A DNA stretch of 64,000 nucleotides. Source: Macrocystis pyrifera (Eukaryota; Sar; Phaeophyceae; Laminariales; Laminariaceae). The position numbers and the translations under genes were made by a program. The stretch is taken from positions 15,930,992-15,994,991 of the forward strand of contig JASSKH010000003.1 of NCBI GenBank assembly GCA_031763025.1. The letters are read 5' to 3'. Of this stretch, positions 4,801 to 63,865 are shown piece after piece. How positions within the stretch are numbered: position 1 is the first letter of the stretch; the number at the start of each line of letters is the position of its first letter. The notes beneath the pieces were generated by a model, which was not told the DNA's origin, ran no database searches, and worked only from the letters and a program-made list of their open reading frames with translations.

Positions 4801-7800
4801 CTGCTGTGGAGCGACGCTCGGTTTGACAAATACCGCTGGTATCTGCGGTACGGTACCGGTATGGAGGTCTATACCGCACCGAGAATTTCGGTACGTTCGG
4901 TATGGAGTTCTAAATCGTACCGAGAATTTCGGTACGTTCGGTCTGGAGTTCTATACCCTACCGAAAACTTCGGTACGTTCGGCACGATGTCCGTACCCTT
5001 ACCGGCGGTATCGGTATGATACACCGTACCGATACCGAGAAGCTCGGTATGTTCGGTACGATGCCCATACCGGTACCGAGAATTTCGGTACGTTCGGTAC
5101 CATGTCCATACCCTTACCGAGAATTTCGGTACGTTCGGTACCATGTCCATACCGGTACCGAGCGTACCCGTACCGTACCGAACACACCCTTGCTATTTAC
5201 TACGGTCCTCCGTAATAGTATAGTGTAGTATCAGGACATCCGTTCAGAAGTGTCAGGAAGCGCGCGTGAGGGGTTGGTATAGTCCATTCCCGAATATTGT
5301 TATTACGGTGGTCCGTAGTTAATAGGACCTTTGGTATACATAAAAACCTATGTATTTTCCTGTTTTTACTATTACGGGGGTCCATAGTTAACGGGACTAA
5401 ATTTTGTTAGTAAAAATTAGTAAGTATATAGGTTTTTATGTGTACCATAGGTCCTGTTAACTATGGACCCCCGTAATAACAATATTTGGTCCTATTTACT
5501 ATGGTCCTCCGTAATACTACTACGCAGCAAGAGTGCGACCATTAAAGTCTAAAACGCGTTAGTGTCAGGCCATTTGTTAAGAGATGTGAGAATCGATTCA
5601 TGGCTTCGACTTTTACGCTGCCAAGACATGTGCTCTTACCCATTGGGGCCCCATACATCCCCCCCCCCCCCCCCCCCCCCGCCCGTCCCCTCGCCTTGCT
5701 TCCTTAATGTTAACGCATACCCCCCCCTCCCCCCTATATTATGTATTATATAGGTTGAGTTGGCGTCGTCGGCTGGCAACGATACTGCTGTAAAACATGC
5801 CGCTCACTACTTGAGCTAGTAATAGCTAGACAACCAGGGTGGTACCGGTTCTTTTCTTGTTCTCTTGGGGTTTTTTTGCGGTCGGTCACAGCTGGTGGTC
5901 GAGGTAGATCATTTGTGTGGGGTGGAGAAATTTTTCTCCGCCCAAAGGGAATGATCGTATCACGTTCCGTAGTGTTTATGGTAAGGCATCCACAAGGCGG
6001 TTACATAGTACTACGTCCATTGCTGTCTCTGGAAGTGGCCACACCGGAAACTAAATGAACTCATTGCAGCTGTCATCCATATGCAAGTCCGCCTCAGAAG
6101 CGGTTCTTTGTAGGATACAGCTCACCCTTTGTGCGACTCGCCGGACATCTCACGGCGCTTCGCGCTTGGTGCAAGCAATGTCTGTCTGGTCGGTGAAAAC
6201 CCGATGTGCTCCGTCCCGGCATTGTAGGCATGCGAGGGTCTATGGTCGTACGACTACGGCCATGCATGGTATCGAGTACACTCCCCCCCCCCCCCCCCCC
6301 CCCCCACCTATCCTGATGAACGTGATAATACTATAATAATGCTAGAATATGCAGGAGAAGTATGGGAAGGAAATGCGGAATTCGTAAGCCAGTCGGAAAC
6401 AGTACAGATGACCGCAGCTAAAAAAATCATAATATGCTCAAGTACGACTAGTAATGCAGTATTAAGAGCAGAATGCACCCACTCAAGAAAAATAGAGACA
6501 TGAAAAGTTGAAATGGCAATACAAAGTAAGGAACATGCCAAAAAAAGAGGTTACCAGCCATGGTTGATAGCGCTCGCTGTATGGAAGAAAGTAACAAAAG
6601 GGCGAGCTGGCATAAGGTGGGATAACGTAGTCGAGAAAGTATGGAAGATGTACGAGGAAACCAAGAAGAGATGATGTCCGCAGAGAAGTTTGGGATACAC
6701 AGGACAGAAGTAGAAGAAAAATTAGCGCTAAGAAACAAGGTGAAATCGGAGAAACACTCAAGAGATATACGGGGGATTAAGCGAAAGGATAGGAATGAAA
6801 AACGTATTTGCACGGCCCAATGGATTTCGCGAAAACGCTGAAACTGCGATTTCGTGTAGGTGACCTGGACCTGCCAGAAAAAAAGAAAGAGGTATACCAG
6901 TAGCCGGGAGGAGGAGGAAGTAGATGCGCACATGTGCCTGTATGGCAAAGCAATAGAGAGTAGAACTCACATGGTAGGAGAATGTGAAATGGACAAGGAG
7001 GAACGGGATGTGCTAGAAGAGGAGATGAGGGAAATAATCGAATGTGGCGTGCAGGAGTTTGGTACACTAGATAGCAGCGAGAAAGCGATCGCTGTCCTAG
7101 GAGATAGGTGGTGGACGCAGGCGGCGAAACCGGAAGGGGCCAAGATCTGCAAAAAGTTTCCATGTAATATATGGAAACGACGTAATGAGCGCCCCAATGT
7201 TGTAGGTGTCTCTATTAGGAGTAGGAACGGTGCTCCGTCTCGAAAGGGATGCGTGGTCAATGGTCAAATGACTAAGGCGCGCAACAAATGAGTACCCCCC
7301 CGGCACATTTACTCCGCCCAAGGAGAATAATCGCATCACGTAGTGTTTACGGTAAGGCACCCTCGAGGCAGTTACATAGTACCCCCGATTGGTGTCTCTG
7401 GAAGTGGCGACACCTGAAAATATTAATATTTTCTAACTCATTGAAGCTGACATCCTTGTGCAAGTCCGCCTTACTGAATTTCGTTAATAGGATGCAGCTC
7501 ACCCTTCGTGCGACTCGCCGAACACCTCACGGCGCTTCGCGCTTGGCGCAAAGCATGTCTGCGTGGTCGGTGAAAACCCGACGTGCTCCTCCCCGGCATT
7601 GTAGGGATGCGAGAGTCTTTGGTCATACAACTACATATGGCCATGGATGATGTCGAGTACACCCCCGCCCCTCCGTCTCCAAAGGGATGCGTGGTCAATG
7701 GTCAAATGATGAAGCCAAGTAACAAATGAATACGCCCCCCCCCCCCCCCCACCCCCCCACCCCCCCCCTCCGTCTCGAAAGAGGTGCGTGGTCAATGGTC

Positions 7801-10800
7801 AAATGACTAAAAGGCATGCTAAAAATGAGTACGCCCCCTTCCCCCACCCTCTCGATGTCGCGTCTGGTTGACGCTTGGCTACGTACGCCTCGTCGCCGTG
7901 TCCCCTTTGCATGGCGGTTCTTCGCCGGCCTCGACTCCCCTGGATGCGTTCGTGACTCTCTCGAAGCGCGTGCGCGATGGGCTTCATGATGTTCTTCCTG
8001 AGCGATATCTTGATTCCCTTCGCAATTGCAGGTTCGGCCGTCCACCTTTGCGGCGCTGTTGTCGGTATGAGTACTCGTCGCATAGCAGTCGGTGCTGCAG
8101 TTGAGGGTGGTTCCGATACTGCACGTCGGGTTGCAAAAATAACGCCTTCTTGTACGCCTTTAACTCCACGGCCACATTTGTTTTTGTGTTAGGTGCTGGG
8201 TTGGGTTGAGTTGGGTTGGGTTGGGTTGAGTTGGGTTGGGTTGCGTTGGGTCGGGTTGGGTTGGGTTGGGGTTGGTTGTTGTACTGTTCTGTGTTGTGCG
8301 GGCTTGACTGCACGGCCCGTTCTCTTTTTTCTTCTTCTTTTCTGGTGTTGTAAGCGAAGGGCTTCTCGCGTGCAGACGCGCAGACAATCGGACGCAGCGA
8401 GTTACAGGGGCCAGGCACAGGGGTGGGACGGGGGGAGAGAGCGGGGGGGGGCGGCAGCGCTTACGGCGGAAGGGAGGGCAGATTGGTAGTTAGTTGTAGG
8501 CGTGTTGGTTGGCCCCGAGAGGGAGAGGTCGGTCGTGTTTTGCGCACTTGAGATGAAGACGCCGCAGCAGGAAACTGCGGGCACGACTTGTCTTTATCTC
8601 AAGAGCGCAGATACGCCTGTCTGTACCAAATCAACCGATCCCTCTGGCCGGCCATGCTTTCTCTGCAGTCGGGAACGCTGCTCTACGCAAGCTCCAGTCG
8701 TACGGGAAACAGATATCGAGAGAGTTAGTTTTACTGTTTTTTTACTTCCCTATCAAGAGCTCGCGTTTGTTGTACTGTTTTTCCACTCTCTAACCCCGCG
8801 ACCTTGTGTGGCCGCTAGTTTCAGTCGTCGCTTTCTGGCTGTTGCCTTGGCATGTTCCATATTCATGTTGCTGCTTGTGCGTTTTGTTTTGTTTTGTTTT
8901 GTTTTGTTGTGTCTAATTTTATTTTATTTTTTATCTTTTTTTTTCCCCGGGTAGTATTTTTAATGTACCTCCTGCAGCCGATGGTGAACTACCTGTGCAA
9001 GCCGCCGCGGCGCTGGTGTGACAAGTGCGTCAAGCGGAGGGGAGAGGTTTGCTGCGAGGGGTGCTTCCGCGTCACCAAGGTGCGTGCGCTGCAGTGCGTC
9101 CGCTGTCGTGGCTGAGAGGTTCACCGCAGCTGTGCCACAGGTGGTAGTAGTCCACAGAGCCTTTTGAGGCGTCTGTTTGGCGGAAAATTCAGGGTGAATG
9201 CACCCATTCTTCTATTACGGCGGACCATAGTAAATAGGACCAAATATTGTTAGAAACATATAGGTGAATATATAGGTTTTTGTGTGTACCGTAGGTCCTG
9301 TTTACTATGGTCCCCCGTAATAGGGCTGCAGTCCCATTAAGGGGACAGACCACTCAAATTATAAGCAGTTTTCCGTACAAGGGTGGAAACGCCTCAGCCT
9401 CGTGTCGGTATTGTAAACTGCTGCTGCAGTAGGCGTTTTTTTGTGTTGATGCTGTTGTTTTTTTGTTTTTTTTCTGATGTTGATGTGCACCTTAATCTCT
9501 GCACGAACGACTACTGCGTGTTGATGCCGCTTTTTTTTGTAGTTCTGCCGCATGTTGATGTACAGTTTGGTCTGGGTACAGCAACCACTGCCACAGGATT
9601 GCAGCTCTCGTCGATGACGCCACCGTATGTTTGCGTCTCGTCCCTCGCGGCCTACCGGTAACAAATCATGTCTGCTGCCTGCTCTACTGTCCGCGGTCGA
9701 AATGGTCGTAAATTGCTTTCCGTACCAGAACCTAGCGCTGTTTTTTTTTTTGCGGGCGATCTGGAAATATTGTCTTCGGTTAGTTGATTTGACGTCAACG
9801 ACTAACGTTGTGGTTTCAAAATTAACGTTTTCTTTGGCTTTGTTCGGTTTCAATTCTCTCTTTTTGTTTTGTTTCGTTTGGTTTGGTTTATTTCTGTTTT
9901 TATTTTTCGTTTCTTCGATTTCGTTTCGTTTCATTTCCTCTCGTTTGGTCTATTTCTGTTTTTGCTTTTTTTGTTTCTTCGTTTTCGTTTCGTTTCTTTT
10001 CGTAATCGTTCCTTTTCGTTTCGTTTCTTCGCTTCGTTTTCGTCACGTTTTGTTCGTTTCTGTTTCGTCTCATCTCATTTTCGTTTCGTTTCGTTTCGGT
10101 TTCATTTCGTTTTCGTTTTCTGTTTCGGCAGTCCCGCACATACAGCGCCATTAATGCGGAGGAAATTCTGCAGCTGGAGCGAATGGAGTACGAGACCAAG
10201 GGGTATGGCTGCTTCAACAGGCCCCTCGTCCCCCGCTGGCTCGCCGTCATCCTCGCCAGTGAGTTTATTTAACCCTCTTTCTACTACCTAAAACAACCCT
10301 ACCCTAAATCCAAGTAATTCTAAGTAGTTTAGGTTGGCCCAAAAACAGGACTGCAGTACTACAAGGGGTTGGCCCCGCTAAAAGAGGGAGTTCGAGATTC
10401 GAGGGCTTTATGGACCCTTGTGGGTCCAACTTCGACAGAAAACGTGGTTGAGAATCGACTCCGACCTAATGGCTGAAATCAAACTTGAAGACAAAATGGT
10501 TTAAAGTGAAAATTTCGACAAAAGGGTTGAAATTCAACTTTGCGACAAAATTGGTTGAAATTCAATGTCGACAATTGAATAAGATGGTTGAAATTGATTG
10601 AACTTGGACAAACATGGTTGAACTTTTTAACTTCGACCGAAAGGGTAAAGGTCCTAAGGTCGAAAAAATGGTTGAGCTCAGATTAGCTTTGTTCAAACTC
10701 TAACCCTTACCTCGACCGTCTGCGAGAAATCTCGGATTAAAGGATGTCGTAAGGAGTTGTTGCTTGTTGCAGTAGTGTGGAATATCGACCATGTCATCGA

Positions 10801-13800: not shown

Positions 13801-15145
13801 TTAGAAATAAAGCTGCTCATTAATGTCATCCATATGCAAGAAAGTCCGCCTCACGAACGATTCTTAGTGGGATGCAGCTCATCCTTCGTGCGACTCGCCG
13901 AACACCTCACGGCGGTTCGCGCTTGGTGCAAGCAATGTCTGCCTGGTCGTTGAAAACATGGCGTGCTCCGTCCCGGCATTGTAGGGATGCAAGAGTCGAT
14001 GGCCATACATAGGACAACGGCCTTGCATGACCATGAGTACCCCCCCCCCCCCCGCGCCCCTCGCAAGCCGCCGATCCCCCCCCTCTCCCCCGGCGTCTGG
14101 CTGACCCCCCCAACTCCCTCCCATCCGTGTGTTTGTCCACCATTTGATTGGTCACGTTCAGGCGGTGTTGTCCTCCCTACAGTATTTCTTCCTCGTGGCC
14201 ATTTTTCTCGTCTACCTCCTCATCAGGCAAGCGCGCTTTTATTTCTTGTTGCCACCCCCCCCCCCCCCCGCCCCCCGAGCTCCATGTCGAAATAGATGCG
14301 TGATAAATGGTCGAATGACTAAGGCAAGTAACAAATGAGTGCCCCCCCCCCCGGCGCTATGGTCATACGACTACGGCCATGCATGATAGGGAGTACCCCC
14401 CCCCCCCCCCCTTCCTGCCTAGTTTCCGCTGATCGTCGGGGTTGCCCTCAATCTTTGACGAAACGCGCAACATCTACGAATGTATGGTTTAGGATTTTCT
14501 GGTATTATTACCCTGATATGCGGCTGCATCCTACCTGTGGTTTTACTGTGCGCCCTGGCAGGCGTTTTTCGCTCGGTGCGTTTACCGCTGATCATCGCGG
14601 TTGGCCTCAACCCTTAACGAAACGTGCGACATTTGCTCACCTGGTATATTTTGATGATTTCTGGTATCGACCTGGTATGAGTAGACGAGGAGTAGGGTAT
14701 ACGAGGATTTGCCACGGGAGGAGGGGGAAGTGTAAGGAGGAGCCTTCAAGAAGGGAAGGCTGGGTGTATGTTGGCTCAGAGTGATTTACAATACGTGTAT
14801 TGTGTGCCAGGTATAGAAGAGCGACTACTCTCTGCGATATAAGAGGGATATCTGTTCGGTTTAAGTCGGACTGGAACATGTATGTATGATACATTGCCGG
14901 AGGACCAATGAAGAAATCAAGTATCATCCCCGTGGTACATTTTTTTCCTCCCAGTCTAGCTGAGGAGACTAAACAATTAAATAAAACTGCTCGAGGGACT
15001 ATCTGTCATACCAGCACCATACACCACACAGCTAGTCTTAGACCAACCTCCAGCAGTAGTAGCGTTTCTCGTACATGAGGCATGCCGACCCCTAGTACTT
15101 ACTGTAGTAGCCACGACACTTTTGTTGGGCCTTTTTTCCCTCTCC

Positions 15146-21200: not shown

Positions 21201-22023
21201 TTAATCGGTTTATGTTCGACCGGCTTGCAGGGAATTCCCGGCATGATCCTCGCGGTGCCCATGGTGGTGATCACCCGAATCGTTTGCGACCACCTGGAGC
21301 ACCCTTACGCCAAGACCCTCATGCGCTTGCTCGAGGGGAATGTCTTCGAGGTGCGTCTGGTTCTGGTTCTGGTCCGATGTCTGCCACGAAACCGTGCACA
21401 CGCGCGCGCGGGGGGGGGGGGTTACACGGTCATTTACGTACGGTTCTTACCGTTCAACATGACTAAATATTTCGTACTAGCGATGCTACCGTGCCGCCCG
21501 GCGTTTTCATGTCGTTTTCCCCCCACGCCAACCTTTTTATCCTAATAGCTGCCATCCTTCCTGTACAGCGGCCGGCGTAACGCTCTCTCGCTACCGCCAT
21601 GGGGGGGCTTTCTCACGGCAGCCTTCGGGCGGCTCTCCTTATTACCCCGCCCCTCTATCCCCTCCCTACCCTGCCCCGCCCCGCCACCCCGCGCGGTATT
21701 GTTTCGGCGTGTACATTCGAACCTGGGCTCCTTCACCTACGGCCACCGTGTCACCCCGAAGTCACCCTGTGCTTCCATTTTTGCCCTTCCTCCCCTACCC
21801 CGACGTACTCACCGTACGCCGCCCCGCACGCCCTTGCGATGTTTTTTCATACGCACGCGCCCTCTTTCATCTACGACCGTCATGCCACCCTGTGGTTTTG
21901 TGCCCCCCCCCCCCCCCCCCCCCCCCTCCCCCCTATATATTATATATGGGTTGGATTGGCGTCGGTTGGCAACGACACTGTAAAACATGCCGCTCACTAC
22001 GTGAGCTAGACATCCAGGGTACC

Positions 22024-22056
<33 letters not shown>

Positions 22057-23907
22057 GCGGTCGCCCACAGCTGATCGTCGAGTTAGATCATTTGTGCGAA
22101 GTAAATAACCTTTACTCTGCACAAGGGAATTGATCGTGTCACGTAGTGTTCAAGGTAAGGCACCCAAGAGGCAGTTACATAGTACTCCCATTGCTGTCTC
22201 TGGAAGTGGCTACACCGGAAATTAAACTAACTCATTGAAGCTGTCATCCGTATGCAAGTCCGCCTCACAAGCGGTTCTTGGTAGGATGCAGCTCACACTT
22301 CATGCGACTCGCCGGACACCTCACGGCGCTTCGCGCTTGGTGCGAGCAACGTCTGCCTGGTCGGTGAAAACCCGACATGCTCCGTCCCGGCACAGTAGGG
22401 ATGCGAGGGTCTATGGTATACGACTACGGCCATGCATGAGATCGAGTACATCTCTCCTATCGAGTACACCCCCCCCCCCCCCCCCCCCCCCCCGCTAGCT
22501 ATATTATATACCTGCTATATATATTTTGGGTTGGTGTCGGTTGGCGACGACGCTGTAAAACATGCCTCTCACTGCGTGAGCTAGACAGCCAGGGTACCGT
22601 TTGTTTTTTTTTTTTTGGCGGTTGCCACGGCTGGCGGTCAAGTTCGATAATTTTTGTGCAGGGAGAACCTTTGCTCCGCACAAGGGGGATGGTCGTATCA
22701 CGTAGTGTGTATATGGTGTGGCACCCACGAGGCAGTTACATAGTAACCCCATTGCTGTCTCTGGAAGTGGCCACACCAATTAATTAAATCAATTCGTTGA
22801 TGCTGTCATCCATATGCAAGAAAATCCGCCTCTAAAGCGGTTCTTAGTAGGATGCAGCTCACCCTTCATGCGACTCGCCCAACACCTCACGACGCTTCGC
22901 GCTTGGCGCAAGCAATGTCTGCCTGGTCGGTGAAAACCCGACGTGCTCCGTCCCGGCATTGTAGGGATGCGAGGGTCTATGGTCATATGACTACGGCCAT
23001 GCACGACAATGGATACACCCCCCCCCCCCCCCCCCCCCGCTAGCGCAGTCGAGAAATTTTGGAAGGATGTAGGAGGAGACCAAGAAGAGATGCCGTTCAT
23101 AGAGAAGTTTTGGGCGGTATAATATATAACTAAAGAAAGAAGGGAAAAACTAGCGCTAGGAAATAAGGTGGAACAGGAGAAACTTTGAGATTTACGGGGG
23201 GTTAAGGGAAGAGATAGGAAGGATAACGTATTTGCACGGCCCAATGGACTTCGCGAACACGCTGAACCTGCGATTTCGTGAAGGGGACCTGGACCTGCCA
23301 GAAAGAAGAAAGAGGTATACCAGTAGCCGGGAGGAGGAAGGAGTAGGTGCACAGATGTGTGCCCTTGTGGCAAACTAGGAGTAGTCTATGTAATATATGG
23401 AAAATTACGTAGTGGGTGCCCAAACCTTTGAAATGCCTCTATTAGGAGTAGGAACGGTGCTCCGTCTCGAAAGGGATGTGTGGGCAATGGTCAAATGACT
23501 AAGGCAAGCAAAAAATGAGTACGCCCCCCCCCCCCCCCCCACCCCTCCCCCGTACCGTACCCTACCCTACCCTAAATTACCGTACCCTACTCTACCCTAC
23601 CATACCCCACGCTTGCTTGTGTGTTTGCCGGTGATAGGCGCGCGAGGACGAGGCGTTCGCACCCAACTGGAACAACGGGATGGGCGGGGTTAGTGGTCAT
23701 GCCTGCGTCAGCGGCATCGGTTGTGTCGGTAGTGTTGGTGGTGGGGAAGGGGGCGGGGAAGGGGCTAACCTGTCGTGGAACAACGAACTCCCAGATGAAC
23801 TGCTCACCGCGGCGGAGGTCGGGGCCGGGCGGCGGAGGTCTTCGGCCGACCCGGCCACCGTGGGAGATAGCGATCTACGGAGATACGGCTCGACCGGGCC
23901 GAAGTGA
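1664..23907 (+). CDS. AI-2E/TqsA/PerM-family membrane transporter, 13 exons
   Basis: Predicted 514-residue polytopic membrane protein of the AI-2E transporter superfamily, whose bacterial members export or exchange small molecules or ions; the substrate here is unknown. Exons: 1664-1824, 7967-8031, 8955-9079, 10132-10258, 11352-11440, 13121-13246, 14162-14226, 15245-15323, 18545-18707, 19196-19242, 20165-20272, 21231-21350, 23638-23907. Phases agree at all 12 junctions, and the sum is 1,545 bp including the TGA stop. Family landmarks lie in the expected order: a first membrane helix built from exons 1-3, PRWLAVILA (exon 4), FVPNLGP near residue 312, NLVEP near 356, and GIPGMILAVP near 386. 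The 40-residue N-terminus is Gly-rich, and the C-terminal exon adds an 89-residue polar Gly-rich tail. The weakest calls are the exon 2 acceptor and a possible 30-bp microexon between exons 6 and 7. The start is the first ATG in an open frame joining exon 2. Introns are full of MITEs, SINEs and a LINE. Confidence 0.9.
1962..2065. mobile_element. TA-MITE copy 3 (transporter intron 1)
   Basis: TTACGGGGAACCATAG ... CCCCCCTAA with TA flanks. Inserted in the reverse orientation relative to copies 1 and 2, judged by its central TATATAGGTTTTTATG. Confidence 0.82.
2557..2662. mobile_element. TA-MITE copy 4
   Basis: TTACGGGGGACCATAG ... GGTCCCCCGTAA, TA flanks; sits inside the older repeat described at 2490-2930. 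Confidence 0.85.
2742..2846. mobile_element. TA-MITE copy 5
   Basis: TTACGGGGGACCATAG at the left; right end degenerated to CGCTCCCTGCAA. TA flanks kept. Confidence 0.8.
3213..3600. repeat. 41-bp subterminal repeat array, left
   Basis: Tandem units of about 41 bp built on CGGTACGTTCGGT with palindromic GGTACCG steps. A nearly identical array lies at 4830-5190 in the same orientation. In hAT elements such subterminal repeats are transposase binding sites; that role is inference here. Confidence 0.8.
3682..3996 (+). pseudogene. hAT transposase C-terminal (dimerisation) remnant
   Basis: Open frame ending TAG at 3996. IGNLLTSDRSRADTYWVEMV followed by FLKANFD matches the hAT dimerisation region (aGNLLt..RsRl....e.l.FLK.N). 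The tail ends MSLEEDEN. No upstream catalytic region is present, so this is a truncated relic within the element. Confidence 0.75.
4000..4394. other. hAT internal spacer, no gene
   Basis: AT-richer sequence between the transposase relic and the tRNA-like unit. One minus-strand open frame (4082-4276) has no recognisable feature. Confidence 0.5.
4395..4471 (+). tRNA. tRNA-like Pol III unit or tRNA pseudogene
   Basis: Contains an A-box (TGGTCTAGTTGG) and a perfect B-box (GGTTCGAATCC) at tRNA spacing. The acceptor strands GTCGC/GCGAC pair, and a T-run (4477 on) could end Pol III transcription. A 7-nt anticodon loop TTCTGTA would give CTG (Gln). The acceptor has 5 of 7 pairs, and the T-stem and anticodon stem pair poorly, so it may be a decayed tRNA or tRNA-derived sequence. 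It lies inside the hAT element. Confidence 0.5.
4830..5190. repeat. 41-bp subterminal repeat array, right
   Basis: Direct copy of the left array: GGTACGTTCGGTACCATGTC and CCGAGAATTTCGG units repeat, with one GGCGGTATCGGTATGA unit. Ends in the right terminal repeat of the hAT element. Confidence 0.8.
5303..5514. mobile_element. TA-MITE copy 7, host of copy 8
   Basis: Outer MITE split at TTTTTAC|TA|ACAATATTTGG by the inner copy. With the inner copy removed the sequence is a normal family member. Confidence 0.88.
5372..5476. mobile_element. TA-MITE copy 8, nested in copy 7
   Basis: Complete 105-bp copy flanked by TA at 5370-5371 and 5477-5478. The empty site in the outer MITE holds a single TA, which proves a 2-bp TA target duplication for the family. 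Confidence 0.92.
5655..6306 (+). mobile_element. Full-length C-tailed SINE (S1) with its C-run target
   Basis: Starts after a C-run with TATATAGGTTGAGTTGGCG, continues with AAAACATGCCGCTCACTAC, a T-rich stretch, GGCGGT-type core, CATATGCAAGTCCGCCTC, GATACAGCTCACCCTT and ACTACGGCCATGCATGG, and ends in about 24 C. About 570 bp. No long ORF; I see no clear tRNA-type A/B boxes, so its head origin is unknown. Confidence 0.75.
6306..7300 (+). pseudogene. Non-LTR retrotransposon (LINE) 3' part, frameshifted
   Basis: Longest of the LINE fragments. An early frame reads EYAGEVWEGNAEFV and AAKKIIICSSTTSNAVLRAE, as in the region after the reverse-transcriptase core. A second frame (to 7291) reads [16 protein letters not shown] and LGDRWWTQAAK, like the Cys/His tail of non-LTR RT proteins, ending GQMTKARNK. 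Frameshifts and stops make it dead. The 3' end is AACAAATGAGTACCCCC. Confidence 0.75.
7301..7680 (+). mobile_element. 5'-truncated SINE (S2)
   Basis: Begins inside the SINE core (ATTTACTCCGCCCAAGGAG) directly after the C-run of the LINE copy, and ends GTCGAGTACACCCCC. Same strand as its neighbours. Confidence 0.72.
7676..7845 (+). mobile_element. Two tail-only LINE copies
   Basis: CTCCGTCTCCAAAGGGATGC ... AACAAATGAATACGCCCC (7676-7767) and CTCCGTCTCGAAAGAGGTGC ... AAAATGAGTACGCCCC (7768-7845). Both are only about 75 bp of LINE 3' end plus C-run, joined head to tail. Confidence 0.75.
8193..8277 (+). repeat. (GGGTT)n microsatellite
   Basis: About 85 bp of GGGTT units with a few GAGTT variants, in transporter intron 2. 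Likely a slippage array; not a telomere. Confidence 0.8.
8955..9079 (+). CDS. AI-2E transporter exon 3 (end of TM1-2, Cys-rich loop)
   Basis: Continues exon 2 with VFLMYLLQPMVNYL, which matches the family's conserved end of the first hairpin. It then encodes a basic cytoplasmic-type loop with six cysteines, including CDKC (residues 97-100) and CEGC (109-112). The acceptor is GGGTAG and the donor AAG|GTGCGT. Paired CxxC motifs here are not something I recall from bacterial members; zinc binding is a hypothesis. Confidence 0.85.
9215..9320. mobile_element. TA-MITE copy 9 (transporter intron 3)
   Basis: TTACGGCGGACCATAG ... GGTCCCCCGTAA, TA flanks; reverse orientation (TATATAGGTTTTTGTG). Confidence 0.85.
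9860..10131 (+). repeat. (TTTCG)n-rich pyrimidine tract before transporter exon 4
   Basis: Degenerate TTTCGTTTCGTT repeats run straight into the exon 4 acceptor (GTTTCGGCAG). It acts at least as the pyrimidine tract. Long open frames in this stretch are low-complexity artefacts. Confidence 0.7.
11874..12170 (+). repeat. GATCTA-rich dispersed repeat, copy 1
   Basis: Holds GTTGTGACAGGTTGTGCAGG, CAGTACAGATCCAACCCAGG and ATAGATCATGCAGG. Copies occur at 42424-42585 (+) and 47505-47755 (-). A (TCTA)n microsatellite starts it. Confidence 0.7.
13810..14053 (+). mobile_element. 5'-truncated SINE (S3)
   Basis: From GTCATCCATATGCAAGAAAG through GGGATGCAGCTCATCCTTCG to CATGAGTACCCCCC. Lies in transporter intron 6, just upstream of exon 7. 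Confidence 0.72.
14162..14226 (+). CDS. AI-2E transporter exon 7 with GC-AG intron donor
   Basis: A 65-bp exon encoding the membrane segment LQYFFLVAIFLVYLLI. The acceptor is CGTTCAG. The donor reads ATCAG|GCAAGC, a non-canonical GC donor. Phase 2 is completed by the T that opens exon 8 at 15245, giving a serine codon. Confidence 0.8.
14257..14411 (+). mobile_element. Chain of tail-only LINE and SINE copies
   Basis: C-run, LINE tail (TCGAAATAGATGCG ... AACAAATGAGTGC), C-run, SINE tail (CATACGACTACGGCCATGC ... GGGAGTAC), C-run. All the same strand, immediately after transporter exon 7. Confidence 0.75.
15150..15218. repeat. (CT)n microsatellite
   Basis: About 68 bp of CT just upstream of transporter exon 8, probably serving as pyrimidine tract for its acceptor (ATGTATAG). 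Confidence 0.85.
15904..15998. mobile_element. Small palindromic MITE copy 1
   Basis: Imperfect palindrome: CCCAGTCCCGTTTTGGGGAC, AATTTGACTGG, then GTCCTCACGACGGGACTGACTG. Related copies lie at 41081-41180, 45682-45911 (split), 55983-56065 and 60274-60371. Confidence 0.65.
16083..16187. mobile_element. TA-MITE copy 10
   Basis: TTGCAGGGGTCCATAG ... GGACCCCCGTAA, TA flanks; inside the first duplication unit. Confidence 0.85.
16509..16613. mobile_element. TA-MITE copy 11 (duplicate of copy 10)
   Basis: Shares the TTGCAGGGG variant of the left end with copy 10, which shows it arose by segmental duplication, not by transposition. Confidence 0.88.
17582..17686. mobile_element. TA-MITE copy 12 (transporter intron 8)
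   Basis: TTACGGGGGGCCATAG ... GGTCCCCCGTAA with TA flanks at 17580-17581 and 17687-17688. Confidence 0.87.
18545..18707 (+). CDS. AI-2E transporter exon 9 (family signature)
   Basis: The most diagnostic exon. It encodes one hydrophobic helix (LLVATVVAAMLWLLGV) and then the family signature FVLNFVPNLGPLVATCLP. Acceptor CATGACAG; donor CCCCG|GTGAGG, phase 1. Confidence 0.92.
18927..19031. mobile_element. TA-MITE copy 13 (transporter intron 9)
   Basis: CTACGGGGGTCCATAG ... GGACCCCCGTAA, TA flanks. Lies 165 bp before exon 10. Confidence 0.85.
20165..21350 (+). CDS. AI-2E transporter exons 11-12 (NLVEP and final helices)
   Basis: Exon 11 (20165-20272) encodes the conserved GNLVEPSLFG segment and the helix SPVVVLLSLTFWGSLW. 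Exon 12 (21231-21350) encodes GIPGMILAVPMVVITR and the start of the C-terminal cytoplasmic part. Both exons are phase 0 at both ends. The intron between is T- and G-rich and shows no other gene. Confidence 0.9.
21903..23540 (+). mobile_element. SINE-SINE-LINE head-to-tail chain
   Basis: In order: C-run (21903-21926), full SINE S4 (to 22493), full SINE S5 (to 23038), LINE 3' fragment (GCAGTCGAGAAATTTTGG to AAAAATGAGTACGCCCC, 23039-23540). Every junction is a C-run and all units are on the plus strand. S4 holds a 32-T run in mid-element, S5 a 13-T run at the same place. Fills most of transporter intron 12. Confidence 0.82.
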
Positions 23908-43700: not shown

Positions 43701-46700
43701 CCTCGGGTCATGTACGTAGAATGGTTGAATTTTATTTTACACCTGGTTGTATGTTTGGGTTCGCGCGGCGGTTGCGCGGTGTCGCATTTTCTCGCTGTGA
43801 ACACACACCGTATGATGGTATAATGGCATAACGCTGCTTAGCAGCTCATAGATAGGTGTTACAGTAGGCCAGCTCGCTCGCTCGCTCGCTTACAGTCGTC
43901 TCTTAGCGGAAGGTCCGCATGTGCCAGCGCGGCGGACGTGCTGTAAATGTATAGTCCAGCATCGTTTCAGATGTTTGCGTTCGTTTCGTTCTATCATGTT
44001 TCATCTGTCGCACGTCTGGCATGATGGGCATGATGGTGGCACCGCGGGGCGCTGAAAGGGGGGTGCGCGCGACCACCCTGCCCCCCGATCTGGACCTATT
44101 CCCGTCATGATGATCGATCGCATGGTCAGGTAGTTTCAGCACTGACCACCGTGTAAACACGCATGGTACGTACCACTGTGGTCGCAAATATAAGGATCGT
44201 TTATACAATAATATGAATACCAATCGTTCCTTACATTTCCGCCCAGAGTGAAAGCGAACACCCCGGGGTAATTTTCCGACCTGATTTTCTTCGAAGCAAG
44301 GGGCACACCCTAAGTTAATCGGTGGCTTTATTGGGGACAAAACCGCTGAAAAAATGTGCCACTCTGTCCCGAAATAGAGTAGTTGTTTTGGTTTAAGAAT
44401 TAGTGTAGAACAGATCCTTATATAATGGGACATAGTGGTAAGCACTTTTCTCCCTAAAACGGAACTAAAACTATGAGCACCATTTTTGGTTTAACAATTA
44501 CTGTACTAGTGTAAAATCATTCCTTTTATCATTGAGAAAGTGGTTAATTATTTTGCGGGGGGCCATAGTAAACAGGACCTCTGGTACACACGAAAACCCA
44601 TATATTTACCTATTTTTGGCAACAATATTTGGTCCCATTTACTATGGTCCCCCGTAATACTGCTTTGTCCTAATAGGGTTAAGGGGCAAGATCCCGTGGA
44701 GATGTTTTCGTAGACGTACGTATGTAAGCGCTTGCACCCTCCCCGTTATCGAGAAAATCACCTTGGAAAATTCGTTCTAGGGGGTGTGTTATCTTATCTC
44801 CCTACTGTGATAAGTTCCATCACCCGTGTGATGCGGTACATGGGGTGCTGTAACTGGGTAGAGAAGGTCTCAACCATTGTCACCACTGTTTACCAGGTAC
44901 CTGTGGTGCCATACACAAGGCAACAACAATCCCGCGAGGTACCAAGAAAACCAAGAGAAAGTTTGGCCACGGACATCACCGCTGATTAAAAAGTACGCAG
45001 CGCTGTACAACTGCTGTGCAGATACACACCCTCGTACAAGATTTCCCTTCGGAGTGGCATGTAGCGATTAGACGGAAGGAGACTATACAAGGTGTCATTT
45101 AAGGTACTAGTTTTCGAAGTACAGCAGGTATCGTAGGTATGAAAATGTCCAAATCCAGCTGCACAAAGAAAGTTACGGTTATTGAGGTCTGATGTTTTGT
45201 AAACGTTCTCAGAGGGTGACCCAAGAGACATGCCACTGATACCTTTACTTATATGCTACTCGTTACTTCGCAGTCTCAGGTAGGTATGCATGTACCAGGT
45301 AATAATATGTACCAGGTATAATATTGTACGTGCAGTTGGGAGGAGACTGTATACTGCTGTGCTTGTAGGTATCCCGAAGCGGTACCAGGAATGATGCTGC
45401 CCAGAGGCACGCTGCGATATGGGTGCACCTACAGTAATATTTTCTGTGGCTGCTCACTTGAAGAGGTCCGTGTGTCACCCGCAACAGCTTCAAGAAAAGC
45501 GTGCGCTTTAGCCCGAACAAGCAACAATCCCATGGCCTGAGAGGCATACCTCGAAAAATAGTTGAAAAACCCCAAAAACGGTGTTTCTGCGTAGTGTTGT
45601 CAGCTAAGAAACCCCACCAGCCAGATTTTTTTGGGCCCAAAAAGTGGTCCACCCCGTATCGTAGCATGCATCTTGACCCTTACAGAACCGCAGTCCTGCT
45701 TTGGGGAAAAAGCACTCAAATTCCAGGTATTACGGGGGTCCATAGTTAGTAGGACCTATGGTATACATAATAACCTGTATATTTACCTATTTTTACTCAC
45801 AATATTTGGTCCTATTTACTATGGCCCCCCCGTAGCAGTTTGTCCCGCCTATTTACTGTGGCCCCCCGTAGTAGTTTGTCCCGACAGAAGGACTGCGATC
45901 TTGAAAGGGTTGATATTAATAGCATGCGAAGTAGTTACAGTCAAGAACATTATGCATGCAGTAGGTACGGGAATGGTACAACGCAAAAGAAAAAATTGGA
46001 AAGCCCCATATGTTTTTTTTTTTAGTCCCGGACAGGGGGGTGCACTAAAATCAGGTAGAAACAAAACGCTTCTGCATTTTGTTTTTCGAAAGAGGAGTAA
46101 TGTTTTGATTTTTTTGTTTTTTTTTTTCGAAGGAGTGCCAGCTATTCGTCGTGCTGCTTGCTGTTGGTTCTCGTGGGTGATGTTCTGTGTCTGCTTGTTC
46201 TCAACCCTCGCCAACATTGCTGCTGTTTTCGCAGCGTAGATTTTGCTGTATACTCATGCCACACCGTGTAGATTGTTGTTTCGTTTGTATTTCTGACGAT
46301 AATCCCAACTCGCGTACTCGTGGTTCTGGTTTCAATTCCGACGTGGTGACGACTGTGCGTCCGTTCTCTCTTTTCTTTTTTATTTCGTGCACCCCTGCGT
46401 ATATATACTTACCAGTACTAAATTAAAAAAAACATACCTGTTATACTCTTCGAAGTATTTGTTTAGGTATTCCTGCTTGATTTTTCCAAAATTGCCTCAT
46501 TTCGGGGGACAGACTAGTAGTAGTAGTAGATTATTAGTATCCCTTACACCTACAGTAGTATTATAAGCGACTTCTCAACGCGCTGCTCGCTTGCCGTCGC
46601 TGTGACTCGGCTCTCTTTGCTTGCTTGATTGATTACTCGATTGCTTGCTTGCTTGTGTTGTGCTCTTATGTACGCGTGTGTCACAGCCAGCGGAGCCACA

Positions 46701-51635: not shown

Positions 51636-53085
51636 CTGCAGCGCAACGCAAAGCGATTCATACAGCATGGAACGAAAGCAAAAAGGCAACGCAAAGCGGC
51701 ACAATCCCAATCGCACCCGAAAAGGGTAGGCAACACGAAACGGAAAAATAACAAAAACAAGAACATGAGCAACAACAACAAGAGCATGGGAACGAAAGGA
51801 AAAAAGAGCAAAATAACAGGGGACGAGAAAAGGAATAAGGGAGCGTTGAGTATGACAAAAAAAAGTGCAGCTGACAGAAACGTGCGTTGGTTTCCCATTC
51901 GTATACCCGTCCGTACACAACAACTTTTAGCATTGTCCGTGTTTGTTCCCAATCGTATACGTACCTGGTACACACTTTCAGCAGTGCCCAAAATAAAAGG
52001 GAACACGCAGCAATCTGCGCCCTATCGATTGAGTACGTGGACACGCCTCCTTCCTGCAGACTATTCATCCATTCATCCGCCCGTCCATCTTCCCGTCCAT
52101 CCGTCCATCCATCCACCACAGGCGGACAAAATTGCACGTACGTGCAAGGCTCTTCACATTTGCACGTAAACTCAATACGGTTGAATGTAGAGCAGGAGTT
52201 GTTGTAGATTTGTATGGCTGACATGGTACAAAATGGGATCGGGGTGCCAGGTGGGTTTCCGGCGGCTCCTGCGGAGGGCTGGTTATATTTCTGCACCACT
52301 AACTGGGAGCAGGGTGCCAAATTGGATAGGCCCACTGCGGGGTCAAGGTACCAAACGGGAACAGGGTGTCAGGTGGTATAAAAAATACTTGCAAAACCAA
52401 GAACTTTGCACGCACGTGCATTTTCTCCGCTCTTGTCCATCCACCCACCCATCCATCCATGCATCCATCCATCCATCCATCCATGCAGAAAAAACGACAC
52501 ATGGTACACACAAAAAACATCCCGCACAAACGTCCGCCTACCTGAGGCATGGAAAACCAGTAGGCCTCTTCGCGGCCAACGTCCCGTCGCGGCAGCAAGA
52601 AGCCGGCGCGGACTAACTTGCTGCACAATCGGGGAGGGGAGGGGGGACGAGGGGGGCAGACACAATCCATAACAAAATGCGCAAAAATTTGCAACGGGGG
52701 GAGCGGATGGTGATCCCGGTCAGTACACACGAAGTTCGGTACTTCGTACCTGGTACGAAGTGAATTAGTTAGCATGTGTCTGGTTATAAGGAGGTAAAAC
52801 CGAGGGAGCGAAGTGACAGGCCGTTTTTTTTTTTTTGCCTTTTGAGGAAAAAAATCCTCTTCATACCGGGGTGCGTACAGGCTTTTCCATTATTTCATCA
52901 GTCTGTCTGCGTTTTTTTTTTTTCGCATCATCGTTGATTGCGAGAGCTGTACGAGGCCGAAATCCACAAAAAGCGGGCGAGGACGGGCTAACGCGTGGAA
53001 CAAGCTCCGTCGCACGCCTTCTCGAGGTGGTAGAGGTCGGTGGGCTGCTTGTGGTTTCGTTAACCCCCCCCCCCCTATAATGAGT

Positions 53086-53119
<34 letters not shown>

Positions 53120-55457
53120 TAGAGAAGTTTACGACACTATTTAAAGACAACAGCGAGAAAAAAAATCGCTATCCTCCGAGACAGATGGTGGTCGCAAAAG
53201 GCGAAACAGGAAGGGGATAAGACGAGCAAAACAAAATTATCGACGGCTGTCGTTATGCTTGGTTCACAATAATAATGATACCATGTAGGGGTGAAGAAAC
53301 GTAAGGAGCGCCAAAATGATGGAGTTGTCCATATTGGGAGTAGGAACGGTGCTCCGTCTCGGAACAGCTGGCATAGTTCATGGTCAAACTACTGCAAGGC
53401 AAGCAACACACGAGCCCCCCCCTCTCCTTCCGGAATGAAAACGTATTTGCACGGCCCAATGGACTTCGCGAAAACGATGACTGCGATTTCGTGTAGGGGA
53501 TCTGGACCTACCAGAAAGCAGAAGGAGGTATACAAGTAACCGGGAGGAGAAGGAAGTAGATGCACAGACGGGCCCTGTGGCAAAGCAATAGAGAGTAGAA
53601 CTCACATAGTGGGAGAATGTGGAAAGTACAACGAGATGTGGTAGAGTAGGGGGTGAGGAAATAGAAGAATGTGACCTGGAGGAGTTTGGTACGCTAGATA
53701 GTAGAGAGAAAACGATCGCTATCCCAGGAGAGAGATGGTGGTCACAGGCGGCAAAACTGGAAGGGGAAAATATTAGCAAAACGTTTCTAACCTTTTTTCG
53801 GAAACAACGTAATGAACGCCCAGCTGTTGGAGCTTTCTCTATTAGGAGTAGGAACGGTGCTCCGTCTCGAAAGGGATGCGCTGTCAATGGTCAAATGACT
53901 ATGGCGAGCAACAAATGAGGTTGCCCCTCCCCCCCCCCCCCCCCACGACGCAGCTACATAGTAAACCCATCGCTGTCTCCAGAAGTGACCACACCAGAAA
54001 TTAAATCAATTCATTGATGCTGTCATCAATATGCAAGATAATCCGCCTCTAAAGCGCTTCTTGGTAGGATGCAGCTCACCCTTCATGCGACTCGCCGGAC
54101 ACCTCACGGCGCTTCGCGCTTGGTGCGAGAAACGTCTGCCTGGTCGGTTAAAACCCGACGTGCTCCGTCCCGGCATTGTAAGGATGCGAGGGTCTATGGC
54201 CATACGACTACGGCCATGCATGATAATGAGTATACCCTCCAAGCAAGCAGAGCGGGAAGGGTTACGCCACCGCAAGAGGACCACTACCGACAATAGCATT
54301 CACCCAGATCGCGGGGCATTGCACTCTTCACAACGCGCCGCACCTGGTGAGGGAGAGCACCTCCTCCCTCTTCCGCTTCAAGCCCCATAACTTCAGCTCC
54401 TCCTCCTCTTCCTCCTCCTCTTCCTCCCCCTCCGCCCCCCCCGCCGCTTTATTGGCAGGAGTTCGCTTCACCGGATGCCTATCTCTGCGTCCCCCGTTCC
54501 CCGCAACAGATAAATTCCTCCCGGTACCGCCCCTTCCCCGCGCTGAAGCAGCCGCCGCCGCTGCCGCCGCTGCCGCTGCCACGACGGACGCCGCACCTTC
54601 TCCCAAATCATGGCTATCGCGGTCACGCAGCACCTCCTCCATGGCGCTCGAGACCTGCACACGAGAAACGTACGCCCTCGCGTTCGACAGCACGAGGCGC
54701 TCTAACACGTCCCTCTCTAGCGAGGTTCGCTCCGTCCGCTTCGTAGGGGTGCCACCACTACCTCCACTACTGCTACCACCACCAACACCACCGCCAATAC
54801 CACCACCACCACCACCATTTGTGACGGCTTCGCGTAGTCCTGGGCCCGCGCTGTCTGCCGCCTGCGTGGCCCCCAGCAACTTTCGTATCTGAAGGGAGGC
54901 GTTTCAAGCGTTTCAGCGGTTTCAAGCGCGTTTCAGGCGGTTGTGGGTGGGTATATACGCACATAAACCCCTGGTATATCACTACAAAAAGCGTAATTTC
55001 AAGAGGGAGGGATCCTTCAATGTATAGCTAGAGGAACCAGTGAAAAAAGCGGTAGACCAGCACGTGGGGTGCTGCACCACCTTTGAACCGATGCAATTGA
55101 TACGATTGTATAAACACGTAGCTTGTATCCGGAACGAGAGGGGTGCGATTTTAAGGGGGTCTCAACGGAGAAGGGGTTGTTTATGGAGGACATCACGAGT
55201 TGCGACACTGCGTTTGTTTCCGCGCTTTCACGTCCGCGAAGTGAGCGAGCACCGGAGGGGACTTATAGCACGAGGAGCCAAGCGCGGCTCGGTTCGGAAG
55301 GTGTTGTACGCTGCACTGCTATGGCTTGCTGCCTGGTGCTGCTGGTGGTGGTGCTGGTGGTGCTTGGGTGCTGCTGCTGCGGGTCTTTGCTACCACTGTT
55401 GTTGCTGATTGCTGCCGTTACCGCTGCCGCTGCCGCTGCCGTTGCCAGTGTTACTAC

Positions 55458-60100: not shown

Positions 60101-61986
60101 TTTCTCTGGGCGAGTTGCTAAGTTACGTACGGCCGCCTATATTTATTGGGGCCCTTTTTGAGCTGGGTGGAAAAAGCCGGAGATCCTGTGGAAAACCTGA
60201 AATCGGGGGATCTGAAGCCGCAAATCGCCTTTTTTTTGTGCGCTCCACCAGCGCACAGTAGGTGATGGTATTAACCCTTTCAGGGCAAACTGCAGCCCCG
60301 TTTTGGGCACAAACCAGTCAAATTCTAAGTAGTTTGCGCCCACAACGAGACTGCAGCACCAAGGGAGTGACAAATATCCAGGGCTATTCACGGGTCATGA
60401 CCCGCGACCCGCGGGTCAGGTCAGGATTTTTTTTACATCAAACGGTTCGGCTCGGGTCGGGTCACCCCTACCCGACCCAGCCCGACTCGACCCGCAAGAT
60501 TTGACCCGACCCGTGAACAGCCCTGCTAATGTCCACCAACAACGCGAGTTCCTATTAATATCAATGCCAATGGCTAGAGCTGCCCTATGCCTTATAGCGC
60601 GTCCCTGCGCCGTCTGTCCGCCGTCCGCGTGTCTGATCGAAACAGGCTGCGTGAAGAAACACGCATCGTGAAGATGGTTCTCAGCAACATGTCCATCGGC
60701 ATCAGCAGCCCGTTCAGCTCCGACCTCATCTCGACCACCAAGTTTCGCTTCATCAAGGCGCCGAGGCTGGAGATGAGCGCAGCGAGCAAGGCGGAGGATT
60801 CCAAGCGACGTAAAACACAGGTGCGCGGCACGCTCGGCGGTGAAGGGAGGGAGGGAGGGGTAATCATGTCATGTATGGCCGTAGTCGTATGACCAGTGAC
60901 CCTTGCATCCCCACGATGCCGGGACGGACGGGGGGGGCACACTCATTTGTTGCTTTCCTCGGTCATTTGATCAATGACCACGCATCTCTTTCAAGACGGA
61001 ACACCGTACCTACTCCTGATAGAGACACCTCCAACCGGGATAGAGGGCAGGGTTAAAGGGAGGTGTGCCAAGCGGCATCTTTTGGCGTGAGCGGGGGGGG
61101 GGGGGGGTACTCGATAGGAGAGATGTACTCGATCTCATGCATGACCGTAGTCGTGTGACCATAGTTTGGCGGCAGGGGGGGGGGGGGGTACGCATGTCAT
61201 GCATGGCCGTAGTCATATGACCGTAGATCTTCGCATCGCTACAATGCCCGAGATAAAAAGCTGAACCGTTCGGGGCTACCCGTTATCGCTGTATTTGTGT
61301 TGTTTGTCATTGATCATTGATGCAGTTGTAATATGATTTTTTGTGTCGCGGCAGTCATTGCCTGGCGTTGGTTCGCGTAAAGCAAGACGTCTTTATTTTC
61401 GTGTGATTTTCTCGCTATTGTACCTACAACAAAATCTTCAACGATGTCAAAGACCTGCACGCTCTCTGGCGCGTGCCTGAAGAGCTGGCGAATCGGAGTT
61501 GTCCGCGTTCTGGCAGATAACACGGCGATTGGGTCATATTGGAAACCCTTGTGGGAGTGTAGGTAAGTAAAGAGGAGGGGAGGAGGGGTGTAGAAAGAAG
61601 GGGGCGGGGGGGGGTAAGAAGGGAAGGTGAGGGGAGTGCAGTGCAGAGGAGGGGGGGGGGAGGGGGGGTTCATACGCTGTCTCACAACAGTTTTGTTTGT
61701 TTGTTTGTCGACTCTGCTGAGGTGCCGTTTGCCTTTTACCCCCCGCCCCTCTCCTTGCTTAATGAGTACACCCCCCCCTCTCCTTGCGTGCACCGGACGC
61801 GTTGAACAGGAGGAAGATAGCGCGTTCGGAACGTACGCCGGCGATGGCGGCAAGCGTCTAGTGTACCGGGAACGCACTCCGGCGGGAAACTACCGCATCA
61901 TCGAGCGGACCGTGGACGAAGCGATGTCTCGGGAACAGATGCTAGACATGCGCGCAACAAAAAAGGCCGACAGACATTGTAACTAG
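57167..61986 (+). CDS. Conserved eukaryotic protein of unknown function, 3 exons
   Basis: Predicted 232 residues from exons 57167-57513, 60646-60820 and 61810-61986; phases 2, 0 and stop TAG agree. Exon 1 has a basic start (MPKGGRLVFKGG, then KKKDKIKRKRERALAK) likely to act as a nuclear-localisation or RNA-binding tail, then GTGRITSSGTAVQGHEAKFM and GDAILVTHP. Exon 2 gives REETRIVKMVLSNMSIGISS. Exon 3 gives FGTYAGDGGKRLVYRER and the end LDMRATKKADRHC. I believe this motif order occurs in a conserved family of protists, plants and fungi, but I cannot name it and assign no function. The start is the only ATG preceding the basic stretch at the expected place. Confidence 0.82.
58630..59530. repeat. 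Inverted and direct repeat block
   Basis: 58741-58812 pairs with 59048-59115 (GTCAGCACCGAGGATGTCGG against CCGGTATCCTCGGTGTTGAC-like sequence). 59201-59237 pairs with 59287-59323. CTGTTCGACAAGTACCACG-type units occur at least four times in both directions. Lies in intron 1 of the 232-residue gene. Confidence 0.7.
60274..60371. mobile_element. Small palindromic MITE copy 4
   Basis: CCTTTCAGGGCAAACTGCAG, CCCGTTTTGGGC, AAATTCTAAGTAGTTTG, GCCCACAACGAGACTGCAGC. It stands eight bases before the hAT-like MITE. Confidence 0.75.
60379..60525. mobile_element. 147-bp hAT-like MITE
   Basis: Terminal repeats CAGGGCTATTCACGGGTC and (other strand) CAGGGCTGTTCACGGGTC, 17/18 identical. The flanking octamers CAAATATC and CTAATGTC match at 6 of 8 positions. 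The inside is GACCCGACCC-rich and palindromic. Ends of CAGGG type and 8-bp duplications are typical of hAT. Confidence 0.75.
60646..60820 (+). CDS. Unknown conserved protein, exon 2
   Basis: Joins HPTT of exon 1 to LREETRIVKMVLSNMSIGIS. Acceptor CGAAACAG, one base completing a Thr codon; donor ACACAG|GTGCGC, phase 0. The long intron before it (57514-60645) contains the inverted-repeat block and two MITEs. Confidence 0.82.
60850..61255 (-). mobile_element. Minus-strand SINE and LINE tail fragments
   Basis: Reading the minus strand, pieces of SINE tail (ACTACGGCCATACATGAC, 60865-60930), LINE tail (GACCACGCATCTC to CACTCATTTGTTGC complement, 60938-61045) and two more SINE tails end in G-runs on the plus strand (61092-61107, 61178-61190). 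The chain is the mirror of the plus-strand arrays. Confidence 0.7.
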
Positions 61987-63700: not shown

Positions 63701-63865
63701 TAGCTCAGATCCGGGGTCACGTAGCAGGCTTGCCCCCCCCCCCCCCTACGACTGGGGCCATGCATGACAATGAGTACACCCCCCCCCCCCCCCCGACTAC
63801 GGTCCGTGCCTTGCATTTTTGCCGCGAGAAGACTGCAGCCCTTTCTTCCTTCGTCGACTTGAGCT
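63700..63865 (+). mobile_element. SINE tail inserted in a dispersed repeat at its C-run
   Basis: The host repeat (AGCTCAGATCCGGGGTCACG ... GACTACGGTCCGTGCC) matches 40160-40275. Between its C-run and the next base lies CTACGACTGGGGCCATGC ... AATGAGTACA with C-runs on both sides, i.e. a tail-only SINE copy of about 60 bp. Confidence 0.78.

What the first reader, a model, noticed from the sequence alone, without database searches (positions are those of the whole stretch)
5655..7845. C-tailed LINE and SINE joined head to tail in a chain
Seen: from 5655 to 7845 the order is C-run, SINE, C-run, LINE 3' part, C-run, truncated SINE, LINE tail, C-run, LINE tail, C-run, all on the plus strand. The same design recurs at 14257-14411, 21903-23540, 53086-54240 and, reversed, 60850-61255. 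Each newcomer begins exactly at the C-tail of the previous copy. Inference: a retrotransposon that ends in poly-C and prefers C-runs, including its own tails, as targets, so it builds growing concatemers with strong 5' truncation. A poly-C tail is unusual; LINE tails are normally poly-A or short repeats.
Basis: partly seen in the sequence, partly recalled or inferred. Interest (0 to 1): 0.88.

Follow-up and report, generated by a model that had tools for sequence, protein, structure and literature searches.

The report
Kelp LINE/SINE pair inserting into C-runs
In a genome that best fits the giant kelp, a LINE retrotransposon and a short partner that shares its tail insert into runs of cytosine, one behind another, so they build same-direction chains; LINEs that target simple repeats and LINEs that build chains are both known, but I met no described one aimed at poly-C.

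Summary
At 5655-7845 a SINE, a LINE 3' part, a truncated SINE and two LINE tails lie head to tail across C-rich spacers; four more chains and solo copies occur in the window. The genome fits Macrocystis pyrifera. In 20 evenly placed 10-kb stretches, 19 of 29 copies have C>=6 within 30 bp upstream, against 1.7% of random positions; G>=6 in 0 of 29; C>=6 downstream in 25 of 29. Genome-wide, at one truncation point, C6 lies upstream at 259 minus-strand places, G6 at 3. Forty-one close adjacencies are same-strand, none opposite. The SINE shares the LINE's last ~70 nt, which are also the end of ORF2. At one insertion, two paralogous sites without the element already carry the C-run, so the 'C-tail' is at least partly target DNA. 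Best reading: target-primed insertion into poly-C tracts, priming from the G-strand; chains follow because the tract survives each insertion. About a third of sample copies lack an upstream C-run by my rule. New variant of a known kind.

The parts
5659..5727 (+). C-rich target tract at the 5' end of the main chain (C22 ... C8)
5728..6282 (+). SINE, 555 bp, near full length
   Evidence: starts at the same point as the copy at 21927
6283..6305 (+). C23 spacer
6306..7294 (+). 5'-truncated LINE, ~990 bp
6860..7291 (+). open C-terminal part of LINE ORF2 (143 aa and stop); the stop codon TGA ends 3 nt before the C-run
7295..7301 (+). C7 spacer
7302..7662 (+). 5'-truncated SINE (5' border approximate)
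7663..7670 (+). C-rich spacer
7671..7734 (+). LINE tail, 64 bp
7735..7768 (+). C-rich spacer (C16, C7, C9)
7769..7833 (+). LINE tail, ~65 bp, followed by a C-rich end to about 7851
13804..14053 (+). solo truncated SINE with C14 at its 3' end; no C-run on the 5' side
14255..14411 (+). chain: C15, LINE tail, C11, SINE tail (40 bp), C16
21903..23540 (+). chain: C24, SINE, C25, SINE, C21, LINE (internal deletion), C17
37781..38249 (+). solo SINE with target-site duplication: 5' C14-GCCCTCGCTC, 3' C10-GCCCGCCCTCGCTC
53064..54235 (+). chain: C12, 11-bp tail remnant, C33, LINE, C8, LINE, C16, SINE
60866..61248 (-). chain in reverse orientation: SINE tails and a LINE tail joined at G-runs of the plus strand
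63733..63794 (+). short SINE tail between C14 and C16

Best explanation
A LINE with a reverse transcriptase and an APE-type endonuclease, and a SINE that borrows its last ~70 nt, insert into poly-C tracts by target-primed reverse transcription. Steps: (1) the endonuclease nicks the G-strand inside a C/G tract [inferred]; (2) the oligo-G end primes on the RNA 3' end, GAGTAC(A/G) followed by C's [inferred; the DNA 3' end is shown]; (3) RT recognises the shared tail, which in the LINE is also the end of ORF2 [tail sharing shown, recognition inferred]; (4) cDNA is often short, giving 5'-truncated and tail-only copies [shown]; (5) the top strand is cut downstream, leaving a duplication that begins in the C-run [seen at a few sites]; (6) C's remain on both sides, so the same tract, same strand, can be hit again, giving same-direction chains [order shown, timing inferred].
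For: Sample of 20 stretches: upstream C>=6 in 19 of 29 copies against 1.68% of random positions, G>=6 in 0 of 29; downstream C>=6 in 25 of 29, or 25 of the 26 that reach the 3' end. Genome-wide, forward strand: 1007 of 1378 exact SINE tails have C6 within 4 nt. Genome-wide at one truncation point, minus-strand matches: C6 259, G6 3 (places, not independent events, as some listed places on small contigs show the same junction). 41 same-strand close adjacencies, one of them a split copy, and 0 opposite-strand. Two empty paralogues carry C27 and C12 where L029 carries LINE-C24; the 3' flank is 93.8% identical over 729 bp. Duplications: 5 of 21 solo copies score >=6 against 16 of 420 mispaired flanks; one of the 5 (L013 4388) is pure C and uninformative. 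RT: PF00078 E 5.8e-21 and 1.5e-21. Endonuclease: PF03372 E 1.4e-4, 22.2 bits, below Pfam's cut-off of 24.5, with SWNV, QES, GDFN and TTDH read by eye in the one copy that reaches that far, L035 (motif meaning recalled). Shared tail.
Against: 10 of 29 sample copies and 5 of 19 window copies lack C>=6 upstream by the objective rule. Of the 10, one follows C76 (L016 987), three are degenerate or tail-less, two are C-rich with C5, and four remain unexplained (L013 9157, L023 1994, L026 2779, L026 6149); L029 and L034 also start outside a C-run. 371 of 1378 exact SINE tails lack C6 within 4 nt. 16 of 21 solo copies show no clear duplication. The 5' flank of L029 is not that of its empty paralogues, so that site shows only the 3' junction. 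The tail structure is not statistically supported: z-scores 0.32 to -1.81, no compensatory pair. No cleavage or priming was observed.
Confidence: 0.82

Rival explanations
1. The C-run is the element's own poly-C tail (RNA-borne or made by slippage), and the pre-existing target needs only a few C's. This overlaps with the best explanation, which allows some added C's.
For: Several copies have a longer C-run 3' than 5' (L008 3133: C6 vs C14; L023 9802: C5 vs C9; L013 9157: C3 vs C21). Among relatives whose frame runs past the stop, several show proline stretches there, e.g. RVRPPPP, which fits a C-run but does not tell tail from target.
Against: In L029 the empty paralogues already have the C-run; C-runs of C14 to C29 precede solo copies; the duplication at 37781 has C's on both sides.
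Confidence: 0.35
2. Chains arise by tandem duplication of a LINE/SINE unit.
For: One array (C129, L002+L003) holds a 1.4-kb direct duplication at 96.7% identity.
Against: In the window neighbours differ by 12-20%, have different 5' break points and mixed LINE/SINE order.
Confidence: 0.05
3. C-runs are non-templated C's added by reverse transcriptase at the end of cDNA.
For: Some reverse transcriptases add C's to cDNA ends (recalled).
Against: That would place a G-run at the 5' end of the sense strand; G>=6 was found upstream in 0 of 29 copies, and the C-run is present in empty sites.
Confidence: 0.02
4. Insertion is random and copies outside C-tracts are lost, or C-tracts mark open chromatin, so the association is selective rather than mechanistic.
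For: Not tested; some copies do lie outside C-runs.
Against: The strand bias (C and not G on the sense strand) and junctions within a few bases of the run are not expected from selection.
Confidence: 0.08

Closest known systems
Zepp (Coccomyxa/Chlorella) and ZeppL (Chlamydomonas) LINEs
   Same: Nested insertion into existing copies gives tandem arrays made mostly of 3' ends (PMC8226300 and PMC3446292, passages read). A Chlamydomonas SINE, SINEX-3_CR, shares ~80 nt with the 3' end of L1-1_CR (PMC3747384, passage), the element renamed ZeppL-1_cRei in PMC8226300 (passage).
   Different: Zepp targets existing copies of itself, and clusters once per chromosome in the Coccomyxa genome; its A-tail is recalled. 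Here the target is poly-C tracts in general and copies are dispersed.
Microsatellite-specific LINEs, e.g. Togen (TG)n and some HERO families
   Same: Insertion into simple repeats (PMC4640811, passages read).
   Different: These are described there among restriction-like-endonuclease groups; here the endonuclease looks APE-type and the target is a homopolymer. APE-type target-specific clades (R1, Tx1) exist too (same passages); R1-clade elements in AC repeats are recalled.
Stringent-type SINE/LINE pairs
   Same: The SINE carries the LINE's 3' tail (PMC3747384, passages read).
   Different: The tail is ORF2 coding sequence and there is almost no 3' UTR (TGA 3-6 nt before the C-run).
Human L1
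   Same: Homopolymer-guided priming, variable 5' truncation, duplications beginning in the homopolymer (recalled); RT similar by sequence, E 2.7e-16.
   Different: C/G instead of A/T, and long target tracts; the clade was not determined. A review notes that LINE 3' ends can be poly-A, short repeats or neither (PMC2881922, passages).

Membership tests
Non-LTR retrotransposon (LINE), APE type | Reverse transcriptase domain | tested here: met
   PF00078 E 5.8e-21 and 1.5e-21
Non-LTR retrotransposon (LINE), APE type | APE-like endonuclease upstream of RT | tested here: inconclusive
   PF03372 E 1.4e-4, below the curated cut-off; seen in one copy, L035
Non-LTR retrotransposon (LINE), APE type | Common 3' end, variable 5' truncation | tested here: met
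   one search lists 41 SINE rows of 40-553 bp and 37 LINE rows of 61-2596 bp; 4 of the LINE rows (98, 138, 411, 1681 bp; L003, L034, L036, L035) are cut by a locus end, and the last three do not reach the LINE 3' end
Non-LTR retrotransposon (LINE), APE type | Target-site duplication | tested here: inconclusive
   5 of 21 solo copies against 16 of 420 mispaired; duplications of pure C cannot be seen
Stringent SINE/LINE pair | SINE 3' end homologous to the LINE 3' end | tested here: met
Stringent SINE/LINE pair | Conserved 3' stem-loop | tested here: inconclusive
   similar helices predicted, no compensatory change, weak z-scores
Stringent SINE/LINE pair | SINE 5' part from tRNA, 5S or 7SL RNA | tested here: inconclusive
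   no Rfam family at gathering score and no tRNA in the window; one SINE copy gave only chance-level Rfam matches; a diverged source could be missed
Microsatellite-specific LINE | Insertions mostly in one simple repeat | tested here: met
   19 of 29 by the upstream rule; C6 259, G6 3
Microsatellite-specific LINE | Empty sites carry the repeat | tested here: inconclusive
   shown at one locus with two empty paralogues, 3' junction only
Zepp/ZeppL | Arrays of 3' ends by nested insertion | tested here: met
Zepp/ZeppL | One cluster per chromosome | tested here: not met
   9 of 20 spaced stretches hold copies; the first listed of 2712 exact tails lie on many contigs
Zepp/ZeppL | L1 clade | not tested
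   no reference tree was built

The most novel reading that the evidence does not exclude
An APE-type LINE whose endonuclease recognises the structure of an oligo-dG:dC tract (for example a G-quadruplex or A-form DNA) and whose RNA carries C's copied from the tract around its source copy, so each insertion also renews or lengthens poly-C in the genome: a retrotransposon that maintains its own homopolymer niche, with its RT-recognition signal written inside the last codons of ORF2.
Probability: 0.2. Interest if true: 0.8.

Novelty: new variant of a known kind. Interest (0 to 1): 0.62.

Why it matters
A LINE/SINE pair aimed at poly-C would give a new endonuclease specificity to test, would explain same-strand chains without special self-targeting, and may shape this brown algal genome strongly: in the 200-kb sample 29 copies cover 5,729 bp, about 2.9%. 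Extrapolated to 537 Mb that is very roughly 80,000 copies (my arithmetic from a small sample). The near absence of a 3' UTR puts RNA recognition and protein coding in the same ~70 nt, a constraint that can be tested.

Tried and rejected
Rejected: random placement, tandem duplication as the general cause, C addition to cDNA ends (strand). Led nowhere: DNA relatives in GTDB and IMG/VR contigs (none confirmed); Pfam on other window frames (one sub-threshold FAM32A match); a known small RNA as SINE head; statistical support for tail structure. Never answered: the LINE version of the C/G flank test and the denominator for the SINE truncation point. Papers on a poly-C LINE: searches; 18 had no paper, and I saw only capped listings of the others (for example 8 of 3,832), none of whose titles or abstract starts describes one; the library lacks most subscription papers and preprints. 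This is weak evidence of absence. Dropped or merged before counts: hits with one base above 70% of letters; three split copies merged (L023 1506+1811, L026 6388+6518, window 23043+23385). In one search the 40 LINE-selected rows include one LINE counted twice (cut between L002 and L003) and one split SINE in L033, whose gap of -2 is one of the 41 adjacencies; those loci were chosen by LINE matches and are not an unbiased set.
Full report
What is there. The chain at 5655-7845 is as described: C22...C8, a 555-bp SINE, C23, ~990 bp of LINE 3' part, C7, a truncated SINE, a C-rich spacer, a 64-bp LINE tail, a C-rich spacer, a ~65-bp LINE tail and a C-rich end, all on the plus strand. The other four chains named are there too, and I add solo SINEs at 13804 and 37781 and remnants at 53076 and 63747. 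Of 19 copies counted in the window, 16 lie within 60 bp of a same-strand copy.

Where it comes from. The window is C211:15930992-15994991 of a 537,376,219-bp assembly. Size and the largest contig met (C189, 26,510,325) match Macrocystis pyrifera CI_03 v1 (537.5 Mb, largest scaffold 26.51 Mb) in Table 1 of PMC12116465 (passages read). Protein relatives that carry an organism name are from Sphacelaria rigidula (120 of 727 listed) and Ectocarpus (120 of 190 listed), plus one labelled as a Hyphomicrobiales MAG, which I take for algal contamination. The species name is an inference.

Is it general? I took 20 evenly placed 10-kb stretches from four large contigs; 9 of the 20 hold copies, 29 after merging split ones. 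C>=6 lies within 30 bp upstream in 19 of 29, against 1.68% of 191,518 random positions outside copies; G>=6 in 0 of 29; C>=6 downstream in 25 of 29 (25 of the 26 with a 3' end) (binomial p about 3e-27). Ten of 29 fail the rule; one of them (L016 987) follows a C76 tract, three are degenerate or tail-less (L020 3853, L020 3907, L026 5952), two are C-rich with C5 (L023 1030, L023 9802), and four are unexplained exceptions (L013 9157, L023 1994, L026 2779, L026 6149). In the window 14 of 19 pass upstream and 15 of 19 downstream. Genome-wide counts: the SINE 22-mer tail occurs 1378 times forward and 1334 reverse; on the forward strand 1007 of 1378 have C6 within 4 nt (the reverse count counts one copy several times and is not used). 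Upstream of the recurrent truncation point CTATGGTC, C6 occurs within 10 nt at 259 minus-strand places and G6 at 3 (here the forward count is the inflated one; G6 has 4 forward). Some of the listed C6 places on small contigs show the same junction, so places are not all independent insertions. I did not obtain the denominator.

Chains. Over 88 rows examined there are 41 same-strand adjacencies under 60 bp and no opposite-strand one (counting flaws are told in Tried and rejected, and the 40 LINE-selected rows are not unbiased). In the unselected stretches alone there are 7, against means of 0.13 for random placement, 1.6 if C-runs are chosen evenly, 2.9 in proportion to length and 10.1 in proportion to length squared. 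So C-run targeting that favours long tracts is enough; a taste for own tails is not required, nor excluded. One array, C129, also grew by a 1.4-kb tandem duplication (96.7%).

Target or tail. C/G runs >=10 number 87 in the 200 kb and 26 lie within 40 bp of a same-strand copy; they outnumber A/T runs >=10 (47). L012 and L021 hold two copies of one repeated segment, 93% alike on both sides of a C27 and a C12 tract and without an element there; in L029/L005 the LINE ends in C24 followed by the same 3' flank (93.8% over 729 bp). So at that place the C-run does not depend on the insertion. The L029 5' flank is different, so only the 3' junction is shown. Duplications that begin in a C-run are seen at 37781 (C14-GCCCTCGCTC / C10-GCCCGCCCTCGCTC), L017 4092, L013 5673 and L008 3133; 16 of 21 solo copies show none that is clear. 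In L008 3133, L023 9802 and L013 9157 the 3' run is longer than the 5' run, so some C's may be added by the element; I cannot exclude this.

The machinery. Five longer LINE loci show RT in L031 and L033 (PF00078), and L035 shows the endonuclease (below the curated cut-off; motifs by eye). RT resembles L1 ORF2 (E 2.7e-16) and R2 (E 3.1e-15); the clade was not assigned. The LINE begins at a C-run in L030, L031 and L036 and in C-rich sequence in L032 and L033; it begins outside a C-run in L029 and L034; the start of L035 was not determined.

The shared tail. The LINE ends ...APSRKGCVVNGQMTKASNK-stop or close to it, with TGA 3 to 6 nt before the C-run, and the SINE ends in a related ~70 nt. Of the 120 listed relatives, 80 match my tail motif and 63 of these end exactly there; of the other 17, several end one residue later and several read on into proline stretches such as RVRPPPP, as expected if a C-run follows in those records too (most of these records name no organism). 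Short copies cluster at 61-67 bp (LINE, 8 of 37 rows) and 40-48 bp (SINE, 6 of 41), near the border of the conserved tail.

Judgement. It works like an L1-type target-primed system with C/G in place of A/T, and it builds arrays as Zepp does. It is a LINE and a tail-sharing SINE/LINE pair by the features tested; it is not filed as Zepp or as any named clade. I did not meet a description of poly-C specificity in the listings seen.

Noticed in passing
L026 6416-6517, L023 1686-1810; window 5300-5490 and about 45825-45900: A palindromic MITE-like DNA element (ends like CGGGGGTCCATAGTTAAC) interrupts LINE and SINE copies and similar sequence recurs in the window.
   Followed up: no
C129:527286-532523 (L002, L003): 1.4-kb tandem duplication (96.7%) of a SINE-LINE unit inside a chain.
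   Followed up: partly
L013 6711-6831: A C121 tract not near a recognised copy; poly-C runs of 10 or more are commoner than poly-A in the sample.
   Followed up: partly
L012 and L021, around the C27 and C12 tracts: A repeated segment with many internal tandem repeats and a C-run at a fixed place.
   Followed up: partly
window 22451-22468 and about 61108-61123; L012 4943; L017 4208: A SINE variant with an extra tail piece (ATCTCTCCTATCGAGTAC), so the end motif GAGTAC is doubled.
   Followed up: no
window 8180-8280: GGGTTG-rich tandem repeat shortly after the main chain.
   Followed up: no
protein hit P0212: A 92% identical RT piece labelled as from a Hyphomicrobiales MAG, probably algal contamination.
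   Followed up: no
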